64,000 nucleotides of DNA from Paracoccus nototheniae (GTDB lineage Bacteria > Pseudomonadota > Alphaproteobacteria > Rhodobacterales > Rhodobacteraceae). The translations under genes and the position numbers were made by a program. The DNA lies in the NCBI RefSeq assembly GCF_004335005.1, contig NZ_RQRT01000005.1, positions 1 through 64,000 on the forward strand, given 5' to 3'. Numbering within the stretch: the first letter of the stretch is position 1; every line of letters begins with the position of its first letter. Positions 22,902-28,420 of the stretch are shown here, piece by piece. The notes below the pieces were generated by a model. The model ran no database searches and was not told the origin of the DNA. It saw nothing but the letters and a program-made list of their open reading frames with translations.

Positions 22902-23630
22902 ATGAACCAGCCTGCCATGACCTATTGCGGCCCCGCGCCCGTCCCCGATCAGATCTGGGCGGCGTGGAACCTTGATCCGCTGTTGCTGACGGCACTGGCT
23001 TTGGCGGGAGGGCTGTTGTTGTGGCGGACGGACCGGCAGGGCCGGGCTCCGGCGCTGATCGTGCTGGCGGTGCTGGTGGTGGCCTTTGTCTCGCCGCTCT
23101 GCGCGCTGACTGTCGCGTTGTTTTCTGCCCGCGCGGTCCACCATCTGGCCCTGATCACGATTGCCGCGCCCGCGCTGGCGCTTGCCATGCCGCTGGCGGC
23201 GCGGCTGCCCGCCAGCCTGTCGCTGGTGGCGCTGTCGGCGGCGATGGTGGCGTGGCACCTGCCGGCGGTCTATGCGATGATCTGGTGGTCGGATGCGCTG
23301 TATTGGAGCCTGCAGGCGGCGATGCTGCTGCCGGCCTGGGCCTTCTGGTCCGCCGTTCTGGCCCCCGGCATGAGTGCCGAGGATGCCTTTGCCCGCGCCT
23401 TGCTGATCGGCGGGCTGGCAGGCGTCATGGGGCTGATCGGGGCGGGCCTGACCTTTGCGCCGGGCATCCTCTATATCCAGCACGTCACCGGAGCCGCACC
23501 CTGGGGCCTGCCCGCGCTGGCCGACCAGCAACTGGCCGGGCTGATCATGTGGGTACCGGGCTTCGTGCCCCTGGCGCTGCTGGCCGGGCTGATGCTGCGC
23601 CGGGGCTGGATGGCGGGGTTCCGGGCATGA
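22902..23630 (+). CDS. Cytochrome oxidase assembly protein, caa3-type CtaG family
   Basis: A 242-residue membrane protein with about seven hydrophobic segments. It fits the caa3-type CtaG family, which helps insert copper into heme-copper oxidases and is unrelated to the Cox11 proteins also called CtaG. His pairs in a loop (AVHHLAL) and WHLPAVY are the family's recognisable marks. It overlaps the CopD-like gene by 4 bp and opens a region that ends with the oxidase structural genes. A start at 22917 is possible. Role is inferred from family and neighbours. Confidence 0.78.
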   Translation: MNQPAMTYCGPAPVPDQIWAAWNLDPLLLTALALAGGLLLWRTDRQGRAPALIVLAVLVVAFVSPLCALTVALFSARAVHHLALITIAAPALALAMPLAARLPASLSLVALSAAMVAWHLPAVYAMIWWSDALYWSLQAAMLLPAWAFWSAVLAPGMSAEDAFARALLIGGLAGVMGLIGAGLTFAPGILYIQHVTGAAPWGLPALADQQLAGLIMWVPGFVPLALLAGLMLRRGWMAGFRA

Positions 23631-24136
23631 TGATCGCGCTGATCGCCGGGCTGAAATACCTGCATCTGGCCGCGATGCTGTGCTGGTGCGCGGCGCTGAT
23701 CGCGCTGCCCTTGCTGCTGAGCCTTTATGGCAGCACATGGCGCCACAATGACGGCGGGGAAGAACGTCAGGCCCGCTATGCCGAGTTTCGCCTGATCACC
23801 CATTACGGCTATGTCGCCTTTGCCACGCCCGCCGCCGTCATCGCCATTGCGGCGGGGACGGGGCTGATCTTTGCGGCGCAGGTGTTCGATCTGTGGTTCG
23901 CGGCCAAGCTGGCGCTGGTGGCGGGGATGACGCTGGTTCATGCATGGATCGGGCATGTGATCCTGATCTCGGCCGAAAACCGCAGCACGGGGCGGATGCC
24001 CTCGCCGCTGATCGCGCTGGCGCTGGCGGTGCCGCTGATGATGGGCGTGCTGTGGCTGGTGCTGGCCAAGCCCGATCTGGCCTGGCTGACCGACTGGATG
24101 CCCGGCTTCATGCTGGCCCCCCGGGGGCAGGCATGA
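23627..24136 (+). CDS. CopD-like membrane protein
   Basis: A 169-residue protein with four hydrophobic segments. It starts with a CopD-type span (GLKYLHLAAMLCWCAALIALP) and has His residues at membrane edges (YLHL, VHAWIGHV). The start overlaps the stop of the CtaG-like gene (ATGA), so both are made together. The pairing suggests copper handling or assembly for the oxidase encoded downstream. I could not assign a precise family. Confidence 0.65.
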   Translation: MMIALIAGLKYLHLAAMLCWCAALIALPLLLSLYGSTWRHNDGGEERQARYAEFRLITHYGYVAFATPAAVIAIAAGTGLIFAAQVFDLWFAAKLALVAGMTLVHAWIGHVILISAENRSTGRMPSPLIALALAVPLMMGVLWLVLAKPDLAWLTDWMPGFMLAPRGQA

Positions 24137-24159: not shown

Positions 24160-24687
24160 TCAGGCCTTGGGGCCGGTTTCCTGCTTGGTGCCGATATTAT
24201 AGTCGAAGACCAGCTTGCCGCCGTGCCAGCCGGTGATGCCCGTCATGCCCGAGGCCAGCGCCGAGATCATGATGCCCCAAGGCAGCACCGCGCCCACCGG
24301 ATCGTTCAGGCGGAACCCCCAGTTCAGGCCCAGAACCGACAGCAGCATCACGGCCAGAATGAAATGCGTCCAGCTGGCGCTGCGGATGCGGATGCCGGGC
24401 ACCATCAACAGCTCGATCGTGCCGGTGACCCCGGCCAGCACGCCCATCCCGAAGGCCACGCCCGCCGCCCACATCGCGACGCGGGGCCAGAATTCATCGC
24501 CCGTCAGCCAGTACATGCCATCCGCCCCGAAGACCGAGAAGGCCAGAGCGATGGGAAAGGCCACCATCATCGCATGCAGGGGATGCCCCGACAGGGCGAT
24601 CTTGCTTTCGATATCGCTGAAGGCGACATGCTCCTCGATCGGGTCGGCCAGCCGACGACGCTGCTTCCACGAATATTTCTGACGCAT
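24160..24687 (-). CDS. DUF2231 membrane protein
   Basis: A 175-residue protein with four membrane spans after a basic cytoplasmic N-terminus (MRQKYSWKQRRRLADPIEEH). The GHPLHAMMVAFPIALA segment and a second His near the end (GWHGGKLV) are marks of DUF2231 proteins, which often sit near respiratory and heme-containing membrane proteins. It is oriented against all other genes of the oxidase island, facing the CopD-like gene tail to tail and the subunit II gene head to head with almost no gap. Function unknown. Confidence 0.75.
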   Translation of the reverse strand: MRQKYSWKQRRRLADPIEEHVAFSDIESKIALSGHPLHAMMVAFPIALAFSVFGADGMYWLTGDEFWPRVAMWAAGVAFGMGVLAGVTGTIELLMVPGIRIRSASWTHFILAVMLLSVLGLNWGFRLNDPVGAVLPWGIMISALASGMTGITGWHGGKLVFDYNIGTKQETGPKA

Positions 24688-24699
24688 CGGAGTTCCCTT

Positions 24700-25563
24700 C
24701 TGTTCCGCATTCCCTGTCACAAGTCCGCCGCTTTGCTGGCGGTTCCGCTGCTGGCGGCCTGCGATGGCCCGCTGAGCACGCTGGCCCCCGCAGGCCCCGC
24801 CGCCCAACAGATCGCCCGCCTGTGGTGGGTGATGCTGGGGGGCAGCGCGCTGATCACCCTGCTGGTCGGCGTGATGATCTGGATGGCCCTGCGCCGCAAG
24901 GGAAATGGGGATGCAGCAAGCCCGGGCCGCGAACGCCGCTGGATCATGGGCTGGGGCCTTGGCTTTTCGCTGACGGTGCTGACGGCGCTGCTGGTCTTTG
25001 CGCTGTGGACCGGCGAACGGATGCTGGCCCGCGACGACGGCACCCCGCTGGTTCAGGCCGAGGCGCAGCAATGGGGCTGGCGCTTCGTGCAGCCCGGACC
25101 GGACGGTGCGCCGGTCGAGACGGAAGGGGTGCTGTATGTGCCCGCCGGTCAGCCCTTTGACGTGGCGATCACCGCGCAGGACGTCATCCACAGTTTCTGG
25201 GTGCCGCAGCTGGGCGGCAAGATGGATGCCATACCCGGCCATCGCAACCTGCACCGCCTGACCGCCGACCGCCCCGGCATCTATGAGGGACTGTGCGCCG
25301 AATTCTGCGGTCTGGGCCACAGCGCCATGCGGTTCACCGTGGTCGCCTATGACCCCGCCCTGCCGCTGCCCGCCTTCGAGGATGCCATCGCCGAAGATCT
25401 GGCCCCCGCCCGGACCTTGGATGCCGATCCCGCAGGCGCCGCCCCCGCAGACACAGACCCCGCAGGCACGGACCTTGACGCCGCCGATCCGGCAGGCGCC
25501 ACGCCTGATCCCGCCACCCCGACCACCGATCCGACGACCACCCCCGAGGAACCCCGCCCATGA
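24700..25563 (+). CDS. ctaC: Cytochrome c oxidase subunit II, Cu-A type
   Basis: Carries electrons from cytochrome c to subunit I through a binuclear copper centre. All Cu-A ligands are present: H164, C199, E201, C203, H207 and M210 (counting from 24700). An LLAAC lipobox suggests a lipoprotein; two membrane spans follow, then the Cu-A domain and a tail of about 45 residues rich in Asp, Pro and Ala with three DPAG units. There is no CxxCH heme site. The start is uncertain: no ATG or GTG exists in frame near the lipobox. CTG at 24700 is chosen because GGAG lies 7 nt before it. The stop overlaps the next start. Confidence 0.8.
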   Translation: MFRIPCHKSAALLAVPLLAACDGPLSTLAPAGPAAQQIARLWWVMLGGSALITLLVGVMIWMALRRKGNGDAASPGRERRWIMGWGLGFSLTVLTALLVFALWTGERMLARDDGTPLVQAEAQQWGWRFVQPGPDGAPVETEGVLYVPAGQPFDVAITAQDVIHSFWVPQLGGKMDAIPGHRNLHRLTADRPGIYEGLCAEFCGLGHSAMRFTVVAYDPALPLPAFEDAIAEDLAPARTLDADPAGAAPADTDPAGTDLDAADPAGATPDPATPTTDPTTTPEEPRP

Positions 25564-28115
25564 CCGATATCTTCGCGGGGCAGGACCGCAGCCTTGCCGA
25601 CGGCACCGCCATCGAGGCCGCCGACATCGCCGCCAATCCGCCGCAGCGCGCCCTGATCCTGCACCGCGAACTGGACCGCGTCTGGTCGGACCTGCCGGGC
25701 TGGCGGGGGTTCTTCACCTCGGTCAATCATGGCACGATCGGGCTGCGCTTCATGGCGACCTCGTTCGTGTTCTTCGCCATCGGCGGCGTGCTGGCGATGA
25801 TGATCCGCGCCCAGCTGGCAACCCGGGACGGGGCGTTTCTGGACACCGATCTGTATAACCAGATCTTCACGATGCATGGCAGCATCATGATGTTCCTGTT
25901 CGCCATCCCCATGCTGGAGGGGTTGGCGCTGTGGCTGTTGCCCAAGATCCTGGGCGCCCGCGACATGGCCTTTCCGCGCCTGTCGGCCCTGGGCTATTTC
26001 TGCTATCTGTTCGGGGGCACGGTGATCGTGCTGTCGCTGCTGTTCGGCGTGGCGCCGGACGGCGGCTGGTTCATGTATACGCCGCTGTCCGATGCGACCT
26101 ATACCCCAGGCATCAATGCCGATGTCTGGCTGCTGGGCGTGACCTTCGTGGAAATCAGCGCCATGGCCGCAGCGGTCGAGATCACCGTCACCATCCTGCG
26201 CTGCCGCGCCGCCCATATGCCGCTGACCCGAATGCCGCTGATGGGTTGGTATCTTCTGGGCACGTCGGTGATGATGCTGCTGGGCTTTCCGCCGCTGATC
26301 CTTGGGTCCATCCTGCTGGAGGTGCAGCGCGCCTTCGACTGGCCGTTCTTCGACGTGATGCGGGGCGGCGACCCGCTGCTGTGGCAGCACCTGTTCTGGC
26401 TGTTCGGCCACCCCGAGGTCTATATCATCTTCCTGCCCGCTGCAGGGGCCCTGTCCACGATCATCCCGATCCTGTCGCGGACCACGATCCTGGGCTATGG
26501 CGCCATCGTGGCGGCGATCATCGGGCTGGTGTTTCTGTCCTTTGGCCTGTGGGTGCATCACATGTTCACCGTGGGCATCCCGCATATGGCGCTGGCGTTT
26601 TTCAGTGCCGCATCGGCGCTGGTCGCCGTGCCGACGGCGGTGCAGGTCTTTGCCTGGATCGGCACGATGTGGGACGGGCAGGTGCGGCTGCGGCTGCCCA
26701 TGCTGTATGTCATGGGGTTCTTTGCGACCTTCGTGATGGGCGGGTTGACGGGCGTCATGCTGGCCATGGTGCCCTTCAACTGGCAGGCCCATGACACGGC
26801 CTTTGTCACAGCCCATCTGCATTACGTGCTGGTCGGCGGTTTCGTCTTTCCCATGCTGGCTGCGGTGACCTATTGGATGCCGCTGATCTGCGGACGCTGG
26901 CGCGTGCGGGGACTGGGCGAGGCGGCGTTCTGGCTGATCCTGATCGGTTTTCACGGCACCTTCTTCCTGATGCACCTGACCGGGCTGCTGGGCATGCCGC
27001 GCCGGATCGACACCTATCCCGGCAATCCGGAATGGGAATGGCTGAACCTGATCTCGTCCTTTTTCGGGATGGTGCAATCGGCGGGCTTTGCGCTGTTCGC
27101 CTTTGACATCATCATGCAATGGCTGTTCGGGCGGCGCAGCTGGCGCAATCCGTGGAAGGCGCCGACGCTGGACTGGGCGATGCCCTTGCCCGCGCCGTCC
27201 TATAACTTTGCATCCCTGCCCGGTCCGCGTCAGCCCGACGCCCATGCCATCCTGCCGCTGGCCCGGGGCGAGGGGCTGCTGCCCGGCGCTCCGCGCGGCT
27301 GGCGCGAGACGCTGGTGGTCGAGGCCGGCAGCGGCCGTCCCCAGCACATCGCCGTTCTGGCGACGAACACCGCCTTGCCGGTGGCGACCTCGGCGGCGAT
27401 CGGCAGCTTCTTTGCGATGATGCTGGCGGGGCTGTACTGGCTGGCACCTCTGGGGATCGTGGCGACGCTGGTGATGGCATGGCGGTGGGGCGCCGCGATG
27501 GGCACCACCCGCGATCATCCGCTGGTCGAGGTCGCGCCGGGCCTGTCCCTGCCGGTGCATTGGCAGGCGCGCAACACGCTGGCCCATAGCGGTGCGGTGG
27601 CGCTGCTGGTGGGCGATGCGACGCTGTATGCCTCGTTGCTGTTCGGGGTCGGGTTTCTGGCGGTCGTGGCGCCGGGATGGCCCGCGCCCGTCAGCGGGGT
27701 TGGGTCCGCGATGCTGCCGCTGGCGCTGACCGCGCTGGCGGCGATCGTTGTATCCACCCTTGCCGCGCATCTTGCCGAGGCGCGGCGCGACCGCCCGGTG
27801 CTGCCGGTCGTGACCCTGACCGGGCTGCTGGCCGCGCTGCTGGCTTTGGCGCTGATGGTGCCGCTGGCGATGGGTCTGGATGATCCGACGCGCCATGCCC
27901 GCGACGCGCTGCGCGGTGCCGTCCTGGGCTTTGCCGCCGTGCATGGGGTGATCGCGGTGATGCTGGCGCTGCGTGCCCATGTCGATGCGCGGCAGGGGCG
28001 GATCGGCGGCGACCGGCGCGGCGCTATTCCGGTCTGGCAGCTGTTCCAGCGGTTCTGGCTGGGCACCTCGGCCCTGTCGGTGGCGCTGATCGTGGCGCAG
28101 GAGGTCTTCGCATGA
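25560..28115 (+). CDS. ctaDE: Cytochrome c oxidase, fused subunits I and III, atypical proton channels
   Basis: An 851-residue fusion. Residues 1 to about 560 are subunit I: low-spin heme His in FTMHGS, H284-Y288 cross-link motif HPEVY with E286, copper ligands H333 and H334, and heme ligands in AHLHY. About 570-851 adds subunit III-like spans. D135 at the D-channel mouth is kept, but the residues aligned with the P. denitrificans asparagines N113, N131 and N132 are L124, S142 and A143. Q362 (VPTAVQVFAW) stands where the K-channel lysine is expected. It overlaps subunit II by 4 bp. Cytochrome c is the likely donor because subunit II has Cu-A. Confidence 0.9.
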   Translation: MTDIFAGQDRSLADGTAIEAADIAANPPQRALILHRELDRVWSDLPGWRGFFTSVNHGTIGLRFMATSFVFFAIGGVLAMMIRAQLATRDGAFLDTDLYNQIFTMHGSIMMFLFAIPMLEGLALWLLPKILGARDMAFPRLSALGYFCYLFGGTVIVLSLLFGVAPDGGWFMYTPLSDATYTPGINADVWLLGVTFVEISAMAAAVEITVTILRCRAAHMPLTRMPLMGWYLLGTSVMMLLGFPPLILGSILLEVQRAFDWPFFDVMRGGDPLLWQHLFWLFGHPEVYIIFLPAAGALSTIIPILSRTTILGYGAIVAAIIGLVFLSFGLWVHHMFTVGIPHMALAFFSAASALVAVPTAVQVFAWIGTMWDGQVRLRLPMLYVMGFFATFVMGGLTGVMLAMVPFNWQAHDTAFVTAHLHYVLVGGFVFPMLAAVTYWMPLICGRWRVRGLGEAAFWLILIGFHGTFFLMHLTGLLGMPRRIDTYPGNPEWEWLNLISSFFGMVQSAGFALFAFDIIMQWLFGRRSWRNPWKAPTLDWAMPLPAPSYNFASLPGPRQPDAHAILPLARGEGLLPGAPRGWRETLVVEAGSGRPQHIAVLATNTALPVATSAAIGSFFAMMLAGLYWLAPLGIVATLVMAWRWGAAMGTTRDHPLVEVAPGLSLPVHWQARNTLAHSGAVALLVGDATLYASLLFGVGFLAVVAPGWPAPVSGVGSAMLPLALTALAAIVVSTLAAHLAEARRDRPVLPVVTLTGLLAALLALALMVPLAMGLDDPTRHARDALRGAVLGFAAVHGVIAVMLALRAHVDARQGRIGGDRRGAIPVWQLFQRFWLGTSALSVALIVAQEVFA

Positions 28116-28420
28116 TCTGGATGGCGCGGGTGCTGGCCGGTCCGGTCCTGTGGGCGGTGCTGTTCTCGGCGGTTTATGCGCTGCATGGGGCGGGCTGCCA
28201 TCTGGGCTGGACGGATCGCGCGGTGGGCTTTACCGACCTGCACCATCTGGCGATGTGGGGCGTGTGGATCGCCGGTCTGGCGCTGCATGCGGTGCTGATC
28301 GCGACCATGCCCACGGGCGGGGGCAGGGCGCGGTGGATCATCGTGGCGGGCACATGGATCGGGCTGGTCTCCAGCCTTTTCACGCTGGCTCCGGTGCTGG
28401 TGCTCTCGACCTGTTTCTGA
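28112..28420 (+). CDS. Small membrane protein at the end of the oxidase operon
   Basis: A 102-residue protein with three hydrophobic segments and conserved-looking His residues in loops (YALHGAGCHLGW, DLHHLAMWG). Its ATG overlaps the ctaDE stop by 4 bp, so it is translated with the oxidase. It could be a small accessory subunit, comparable in position to CtaF or subunit IV, or an assembly helper. I recognise no family. Confidence 0.65.
   Translation: MIWMARVLAGPVLWAVLFSAVYALHGAGCHLGWTDRAVGFTDLHHLAMWGVWIAGLALHAVLIATMPTGGGRARWIIVAGTWIGLVSSLFTLAPVLVLSTCF

What the first reader, a model, noticed from the sequence alone, without database searches (positions are those of the whole stretch)
25560..28115. 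Fused aa3-type oxidase subunit I+III without a K-channel lysine
Seen: Q362 in VPTAVQVFAW where the lysine of VPTG(I/V)K is otherwise nearly universal in A-type oxidases (K354 P. denitrificans, K362 R. sphaeroides, K319 bovine). The residues aligned with D-channel asparagines N113, N131 and N132 (P. denitrificans) are Leu, Ser and Ala. Yet H284, E286, Y288, H333, H334, D135 and the heme ligands are intact, so this is not a dead gene. Inference: proton delivery uses another route, so pumping efficiency, O2 affinity or substrate (O2 versus NO) may differ from canonical aa3. The gene cluster (CtaG-like, CopD-like, DUF2231, small three-span protein) seems specific to it.
Basis: partly seen in the sequence, partly recalled or inferred. 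Interest (0 to 1): 0.72.

Follow-up and report, generated by a model that had tools for sequence, protein, structure and literature searches.

The report
Oxidase clade without K-channel lysine
A fused cytochrome oxidase gene in this Paracoccus-like genome belongs to a broad group of bacterial oxidases that lack the key residues of one of the two standard proton entry routes and carry three new conserved glutamates near the other, so they may move protons in an unusual way.

Summary
The window encodes an 851-aa fused subunit I+III of an A-type oxidase with Gln362 where the K-channel Lys is expected. It is not a one-off: Gln stands there in 136 of 136 distinct clade sequences read, while 64 of 64 K-type controls keep Lys. 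On a tree built without the trait columns the Gln sequences are one clade (100/96). A second Lys-less group (HPW for HPE; Ala/Gly/Ser/Thr for Lys) lies next to them.

(2) Three Glu were gained in TM2 and TM4: E120, E198, E207 (132, 136, 133 of 136); E207 replaces a D-channel Asn. (3) The Asn gate is altered; Ser or Thr at its key Asn (108 of 136) is described in print as decoupling in canonical enzymes.

Best reading, inferred from sequence: an O2-reducing cytochrome c oxidase taking its protons through a rebuilt D-pathway, probably with reduced pumping. The fusion and cluster match a published type (COX operon type a). I found the missing K-channel of this clade in no open-access text searched; subscription papers and supplements were not seen.

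The parts
25560..28115 (+). Fused subunit I+III (851 aa), stop codon included
   Evidence: Open frame; COX1 residues 60-505; AlphaFold2 model pLDDT 82.4, pTM 0.88; best fold match Thermus caa3 I+III 2yev_A, TM 0.81 by query length over 808 columns
26643..26645 (+). Codon of Q362, at the K-channel Lys place
25917..25919 (+). Codon of E120 (P. denitrificans position 109), new Glu in TM2
   Evidence: Glu 132, Gln 4 of 136; Gly in most K-type rows
26151..26153 (+). Codon of E198 (position 190), new Glu in TM4
   Evidence: Glu 136 of 136; Gly 22 of 23 in K-type rows
26178..26180 (+). Codon of E207 (position 199), Glu in place of a D-channel Asn
   Evidence: Glu 133 of 136; Asn 23 of 23 K-type rows and 40 of 40 further controls
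25962..25964 (+). Codon of D135, D-pathway entrance Asp
   Evidence: Asp 121, Glu 5, Asn 9, Ser 1 of 136
26415..26417 (+). Codon of E286, D-pathway end
   Evidence: Glu 135, Asp 1 of 136
27327..28112 (+). Approximate subunit III-like part (from about residue 590)
   Evidence: Hydrophobic segments; full-length fold match to a I+III chain; no COX3 Pfam hit at E 0.001
24700..25563 (+). Subunit II with CuA motif and lipobox-like N-terminus; start codon not determined
   Evidence: COX2 Pfam 2.5e-18; sequence; K-channel entrance Glu absent
28112..28420 (+). Small protein (102 aa), three hydrophobic stretches
   Evidence: No Pfam or NCBIfam hit; found in 52 of 53 full-flank loci
22902..23630 (+). Caa3_CtaG copper assembly factor
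   Evidence: PF09678 8.2e-18; 53 of 53 loci
23627..24136 (+). CopD-like / UPF0093 membrane protein
   Evidence: PF03653 3.4e-9; 53 of 53 loci
24160..24690 (-). DUF2231 membrane protein, divergent
   Evidence: PF09990 3.7e-37; 48 of 53 loci

Best explanation
A cytochrome c-type, O2-reducing A-family oxidase (CuA in subunit II, low-spin heme and heme/CuB site in subunit I) in which the K-channel has been dismantled at both ends: Lys362 to Gln in subunit I, and the entrance Glu lost from subunit II. All protons then enter by a rebuilt D-pathway: D135 at the mouth, the Asn gate altered, Glu207 and Glu120 on the channel side, Glu286 at the top. Shown here: the residues, their conservation and a single origin on the tree. 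Inferred: that the glutamates take over the protons that the K-channel otherwise supplies in the reductive phase, and that pumping is weak or absent because Ser/Thr at the key gate Asn decouples canonical enzymes. It would be a less tightly coupled outlet for cytochrome c electrons beside the canonical aa3 oxidase of the same genome.
For: Q362 in 136 of 136 distinct clade sequences, Lys in 64 of 64 controls. Subunit II entrance Glu 15 of 15 against 0 of 102. New Glu at 109, 190, 199 (132, 136, 133 of 136). The three sequences without E199 all have Gln at 109, as if the two positions were linked. By helix phase, position Rs117 lies on the mean channel-facing direction of TM2 and Rs207 is itself a listed D-channel residue (residue list from PMC10341450, passages). 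Gate Asn is Ser or Thr in 108 of 136; PMC10194837 (passages) calls N98T and N98S decoupled mutants, says N98D abolishes pumping without affecting O2 reduction, and that K319M abolishes the reductive phase (that N98 equals this residue is recalled). E101 of subunit II is stated to be essential for K-channel transport (PMC9687966, passages).
Against: No activity, pumping or structure has been measured and I had no coordinates, so no distance was tested. Ten of 136 sequences, mostly rhizobial-type unfused ones, lack an acid at the D-channel mouth (Asn 9, Ser 1), which in canonical enzymes would block the D-pathway. Thirteen of 136 keep the gate Asn. E198 points 126 degrees away from the mean channel face by helix phase, so its role is unexplained. 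T359, S299 and Y288 of the upper K-channel stay polar in most members, and 22 of 102 subunit II rows have His at the Glu place. The pattern arose once on the tree, so it is one event, not many.
Confidence: 0.45

Rival explanations
1. A K-like path still works without Lys: Gln362, Thr359, Ser299, Tyr288 and waters conduct protons, as Lys-free K-channel analogues do in B- and C-type oxidases (comparison recalled). The subunit II side uses His or another entrance.
For: Gln invariant rather than variable (136 of 136), Tyr280(288) 136 of 136, Ser291(299) 125 of 136, Thr351(359) Thr/Ser 132 of 136. His at the subunit II Glu place in 22 of 102.
Against: No acid at the entrance in 102 of 102 rows, hydrophobic in most; no new acid or base in TM6-TM8; the gain of Glu lies on the D side.
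Confidence: 0.25
2. D-only uptake, but pumping fully kept: the new Glu replace the Asn gate as a valve, so H+/e- stays near 1.
For: Three Glu kept almost without exception suggest compensation rather than decay; 13 of 136 still have the gate Asn; E286 and the arginine pair R481/R482 are invariant in 50 members.
Against: Acidic or Ser/Thr changes in the gate region decouple canonical enzymes (PMC10194837, passages).
Confidence: 0.22
3. Not an O2 reductase in practice: it acts on NO or another substrate, or is inactive.
For: Lys lost and D-channel changed. The R. etli coxN mutant, possibly a relative (orthology not tested; [quoted passage not shown]
Against: Catalytic residues, CuA motif and a copper assembly gene are conserved; lack of growth phenotype is expected in strains with several oxidases.
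Confidence: 0.05

Closest known systems
COX operon type a / A1 subtype a with fused COX1-3 (PMC4013037, PMC6431628; passages)
   Same: Fused I+III, Caa3_CtaG nearby, alphaproteobacterial, distant from mitochondrial COX1
   Different: The passages seen say nothing of a missing K-channel or of the new Glu; direct comparison with its named example (R. palustris BisA53) was not made
Alternative aa3 oxidase CoxMNOP (PMC5492768, PMC4274787; passages)
   Same: Unfused Gln-type relatives with separate subunit III fall in the same clade; whether the published CoxN proteins are among them was not tested
   Different: Window gene is fused; unfused rows keep the gate Asn more often and some lack the D-channel Asp
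Canonical A1 oxidase (P. denitrificans, C. sphaeroides aa3)
   Same: Fold, catalytic residues, D135 and E286 equivalents, CuA
   Different: Canonical enzymes keep Lys362, the subunit II Glu, N121, N139, N207
Thermus caa3 I+III (2yev_A)
   Same: Best fold match over nearly the whole chain
   Different: 29% identity; its K-channel residues were not read here
HPW group (L098, L099, L167, L170-L173)
   Same: Sister clade, also without Lys; no subunit II Glu in the two rows checked
   Different: Trp for Glu286; canonical N113, N131, N199, G190

Membership tests
A-type heme-copper oxidase (A1) | COX1 fold and sequence kinship | tested here: met
A-type heme-copper oxidase (A1) | CuB His, cross-link Tyr and HPE Glu | tested here: met
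A-type heme-copper oxidase (A1) | K-channel Lys and subunit II Glu | tested here: not met
   Gln in 136 of 136; Glu in 0 of 102 subunit II rows
A-type heme-copper oxidase (A1) | D-channel Asp and Asn (N113, N131, N199) | tested here: not met
   Asp kept in the window; Leu, Ser, Glu at the three Asn
A-type heme-copper oxidase (A1) | Pumps about one proton per electron | not testable with these tools
   Needs purified enzyme
COX operon type a (COX1-3) | Subunit III fused to subunit I | tested here: met
   Length and full-length fold match; no COX3 Pfam hit
COX operon type a (COX1-3) | Caa3_CtaG in the cluster | tested here: met
COX operon type a (COX1-3) | Kinship with the named R. palustris BisA53 protein | not tested
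   Sequence not fetched
CoxMNOP | Separate subunit III genes | tested here: not met
   Window gene is fused
Nitric oxide reductase | No cross-link Tyr, no CuA subunit II | tested here: not met
   Tyr288 and the CuA motif are present

The most novel reading that the evidence does not exclude
A large natural lineage of A-type cytochrome c oxidases that runs without any K-channel, feeds all protons through a D-pathway rebuilt with conserved glutamates, and is naturally uncoupled from proton pumping.
Probability: 0.33. Interest if true: 0.85.

Novelty: new variant of a known kind. Interest (0 to 1): 0.64.

Why it matters
Papers seen here hold that reductive-phase protons must use the K-channel (PMC10341450; PMC10194837). 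A natural clade without its key residues, carrying the very gate substitutions that decouple laboratory mutants and three new conserved glutamates, would let the division of labour between the two channels be tested in enzymes that evolution has already adjusted. It also bears on why genomes with several oxidases keep one that may yield less energy.

Tried and rejected
Rejected: dead gene (catalytic residues and cluster conserved); NO reductase (Tyr, CuA kept); a shifted Lys or Glu in TM6-TM8 (none gained); a lone mutation (136 of 136).

Led nowhere: a single-sequence fold, started by mistake instead of the alignment fold, had pLDDT 42 and was not used. Model coordinates are not in the script box, so no distances. 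A first reading of the 40 extra controls took wrong frames in 11; only its repeat is used. Phrases for a missing K-channel found 0 papers. Supplements could not be read, so the K-channel variants in Supplementary Figure 7 of PMC8239418 were not seen.

Limits of the samples: one search kept the best 80 of 259 relatives. One search scored two candidates per genome. Of 901 plasmid records, 60 were listed and 19 of those fetched, plus one. Outside Pseudomonadota only five COX1 rows were read (L148, L149, L153, L154, L156), so other phyla are hardly sampled.

Rows dropped: subunit II count, 7 rows: L005_1 and L009_1 (second copies; by eye no such Glu), L019_0 and L069_0 (short or out of frame), L003_0 and window_0 (duplicates), and L157_0 (its subunit I is K-type, its subunit II is divergent and by eye shows no such Glu, so it is a possible exception to 15 of 15). 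Trees: 78 rows after an 85% identity cut, 54 rows after a 75% cut, without L154, L157, L174. L154 (archaeal, Ile at the Lys place) and L174 (fragment) are in neither the 136 nor the 64. A1 holds 50 of the 81 possible rows; L077 and L078 were left out after met a stop in L078. L178-L182 were read by motif only (Gln in 4 of 4 HPE rows, Ala in the HPW row) and are not in the 136.

Full report
What is there. The ORF at 25560-28115 (+) is open and encodes 851 aa; Pfam gives COX1 over residues 60-505 and no COX3 hit. AlphaFold2 with 50 clade members gives pLDDT 82.4 and pTM 0.88. The best fold match is the fused I+III of Thermus caa3 (2yev_A, TM 0.81 by query length, 808 columns). The genome (4.6 Mb, 235 contigs) holds four PF00115 genes: one with VPTGIK (aa3-like), one with VPTGAK (grouped with a Bacillus quinol oxidase), the window gene (VPTAVQ) and a fourth whose type was not tested and which I take to be cbb3.

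The Lys is gone in a clade. A genome scan found 259 relatives and kept the best 80; all 80 have Gln at that column. They come from Paracoccus and other Rhodobacteraceae, Ancylobacter, Hyphomonas, Sphingomonas, Fulvimarina and others. In a sample of 398 genomes of the phylum, 40 had a match at E <= 1e-115, with 43 matches listed: 37 with Gln, 5 of the HPW kind, and 1 fragment without that column. No Lys-bearing sequence passed that threshold, though only two candidates per genome were scored. A sample of 190 genomes of the class gave further members. After duplicates, 136 distinct Gln sequences were read. Controls: 24 Lys rows (aa3, bo3, actinobacterial, cyanobacterial, Bacillus and other types) and 40 further matches from the class list: 64 of 64 have Lys.

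What goes with it (136 distinct sequences; P. denitrificans position, window number in brackets). 109 (120): Glu 132, Gln 4. 113 (124): never Asn. 123 (134): Arg 136. 124 (135): Asp 121, Glu 5, Asn 9, Ser 1. 131 (142): Ser 70, Thr 38, Gly 13, Ala 2, Asn 13. 190 (198): Glu 136. 199 (207): Glu 133, and Val, Cys, Ala once each. 278 (286): Glu 135, Asp 1. 280 (288): Tyr 136. In the 40 extra controls positions 113, 124, 131, 190 and 199 are Asn, Asp, Asn, Gly, Asn in 40 of 40. The three sequences without E199 (L147, L161, L169) all have Gln at 109; L163 has Gln at 109 with E199 kept. In subunit II the K-channel entrance Glu is present in 15 of 15 K-type rows and 0 of 102 Gln-type rows, where His (22) or mostly hydrophobic residues stand (seven rows dropped, see Tried and rejected).

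History. With trait columns removed, the 34 Gln rows of the careful tree are one side of a branch (100/96), and Gln plus HPW rows are separated from 17 Lys rows by a branch with 100/98. A larger quick tree agrees (97 and 99) and puts the quinol oxidases next to the Lys-less group with weaker support (89). Unfused Gln rows, whose match ends near residue 660 of the window protein, are sister to the fused ones. The 7 distinct HPW sequences (Ala 4, Gly 1, Ser 1, Thr 1 at the Lys place) keep the D-channel Asn and lack the new Glu. So Lys was lost at or before the split and the Glu were gained on the Gln branch: one event each, as far as this sample shows.

What it means. A review (PMC10194837, passages; bovine numbers) states that K319M abolishes the reductive phase, that N98D abolishes pumping but not O2 reduction, and that N98T and N98S are decoupled mutants. 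N98 (N131, N139 in the two bacterial numberings; equivalence recalled) is Ser or Thr in 108 of 136 clade sequences, Ser in the window. PMC10341450 (passages) lists N121, N139 and N207 among residues that define the D-channel, names N121/N139 the asparagine gate, and says reductive-phase chemical protons have to use the K-channel. PMC9687966 (passages) says E101 of subunit II is essential for K-channel transport. By helix phase, the Glu at Rs117 is on the channel side of TM2, Rs207 is a listed channel residue, and Rs198 is 126 degrees off. The simplest account is an enzyme fed by a rebuilt D-pathway, with weak coupling. The residues and their history are shown; the route and the coupling are inference. 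Against it: ten of 136 members lack an acid at the D mouth, thirteen keep the gate Asn, the upper K-channel stays polar, and nothing was measured.

Neighbourhood. Of 53 relatives with full flanks, all have the Caa3_CtaG, CopD-like and CoxB genes, 52 the small three-span protein, 48 DUF2231, and 8 the rRNA methyltransferase-like gene that follows in the window (that name is my reading of the sequence). So the cluster is a unit in changing surroundings. It also occurs on plasmids. More distant members have c-type cytochromes, a PQQ dehydrogenase, or a separate subunit III beside them.

Known or new. The fusion and the CtaG link match COX operon type a (PMC4013037, PMC6431628; passages). CoxMNOP is a described alternative oxidase; the R. 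[quoted passage not shown] passages). Searches touching the K-channel and passages of PMC8239418, PMC9145763 and PMC10715153 showed K-channel loss discussed for archaeal oxidases but not for this clade. Only open-access main texts were reachable, so an earlier notice cannot be excluded.

Noticed in passing
L098, L099, L167, L170-L173, L182: A sister group with HPW in place of HPE and Ala/Gly/Ser/Thr in place of the Lys: it lacks both the D-channel Glu286 and the K-channel Lys but keeps the D-channel Asn. In Mesorhizobium INR15 it lies beside pqqCDE, a PQQ methanol/ethanol dehydrogenase and a c-type cytochrome.
   Followed up: partly
L141, L142, L144, L147, L163-L166, L168, L169: Unfused Gln-type oxidases, among them one of Rhizobium phaseoli and one of Paraburkholderia caribensis, that also lack the D-channel entrance Asp (Asn or Ser).
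   Followed up: no
L005, L009: A second CoxB-like gene of a different Gln-type kind lies in the same stretch in Paracoccus beibuensis and P. rhizosphaerae.
   Followed up: no
L149: Two DUF2231 genes directly precede a K-type oxidase operon on a Trichormus variabilis plasmid.
   Followed up: no
L118: One clade member has Asp for the D-channel end Glu (HPD).
   Followed up: no
25350-25560: The C-terminal tail of subunit II is a repetitive Pro/Ala/Asp/Thr stretch without a heme c motif.
   Followed up: no
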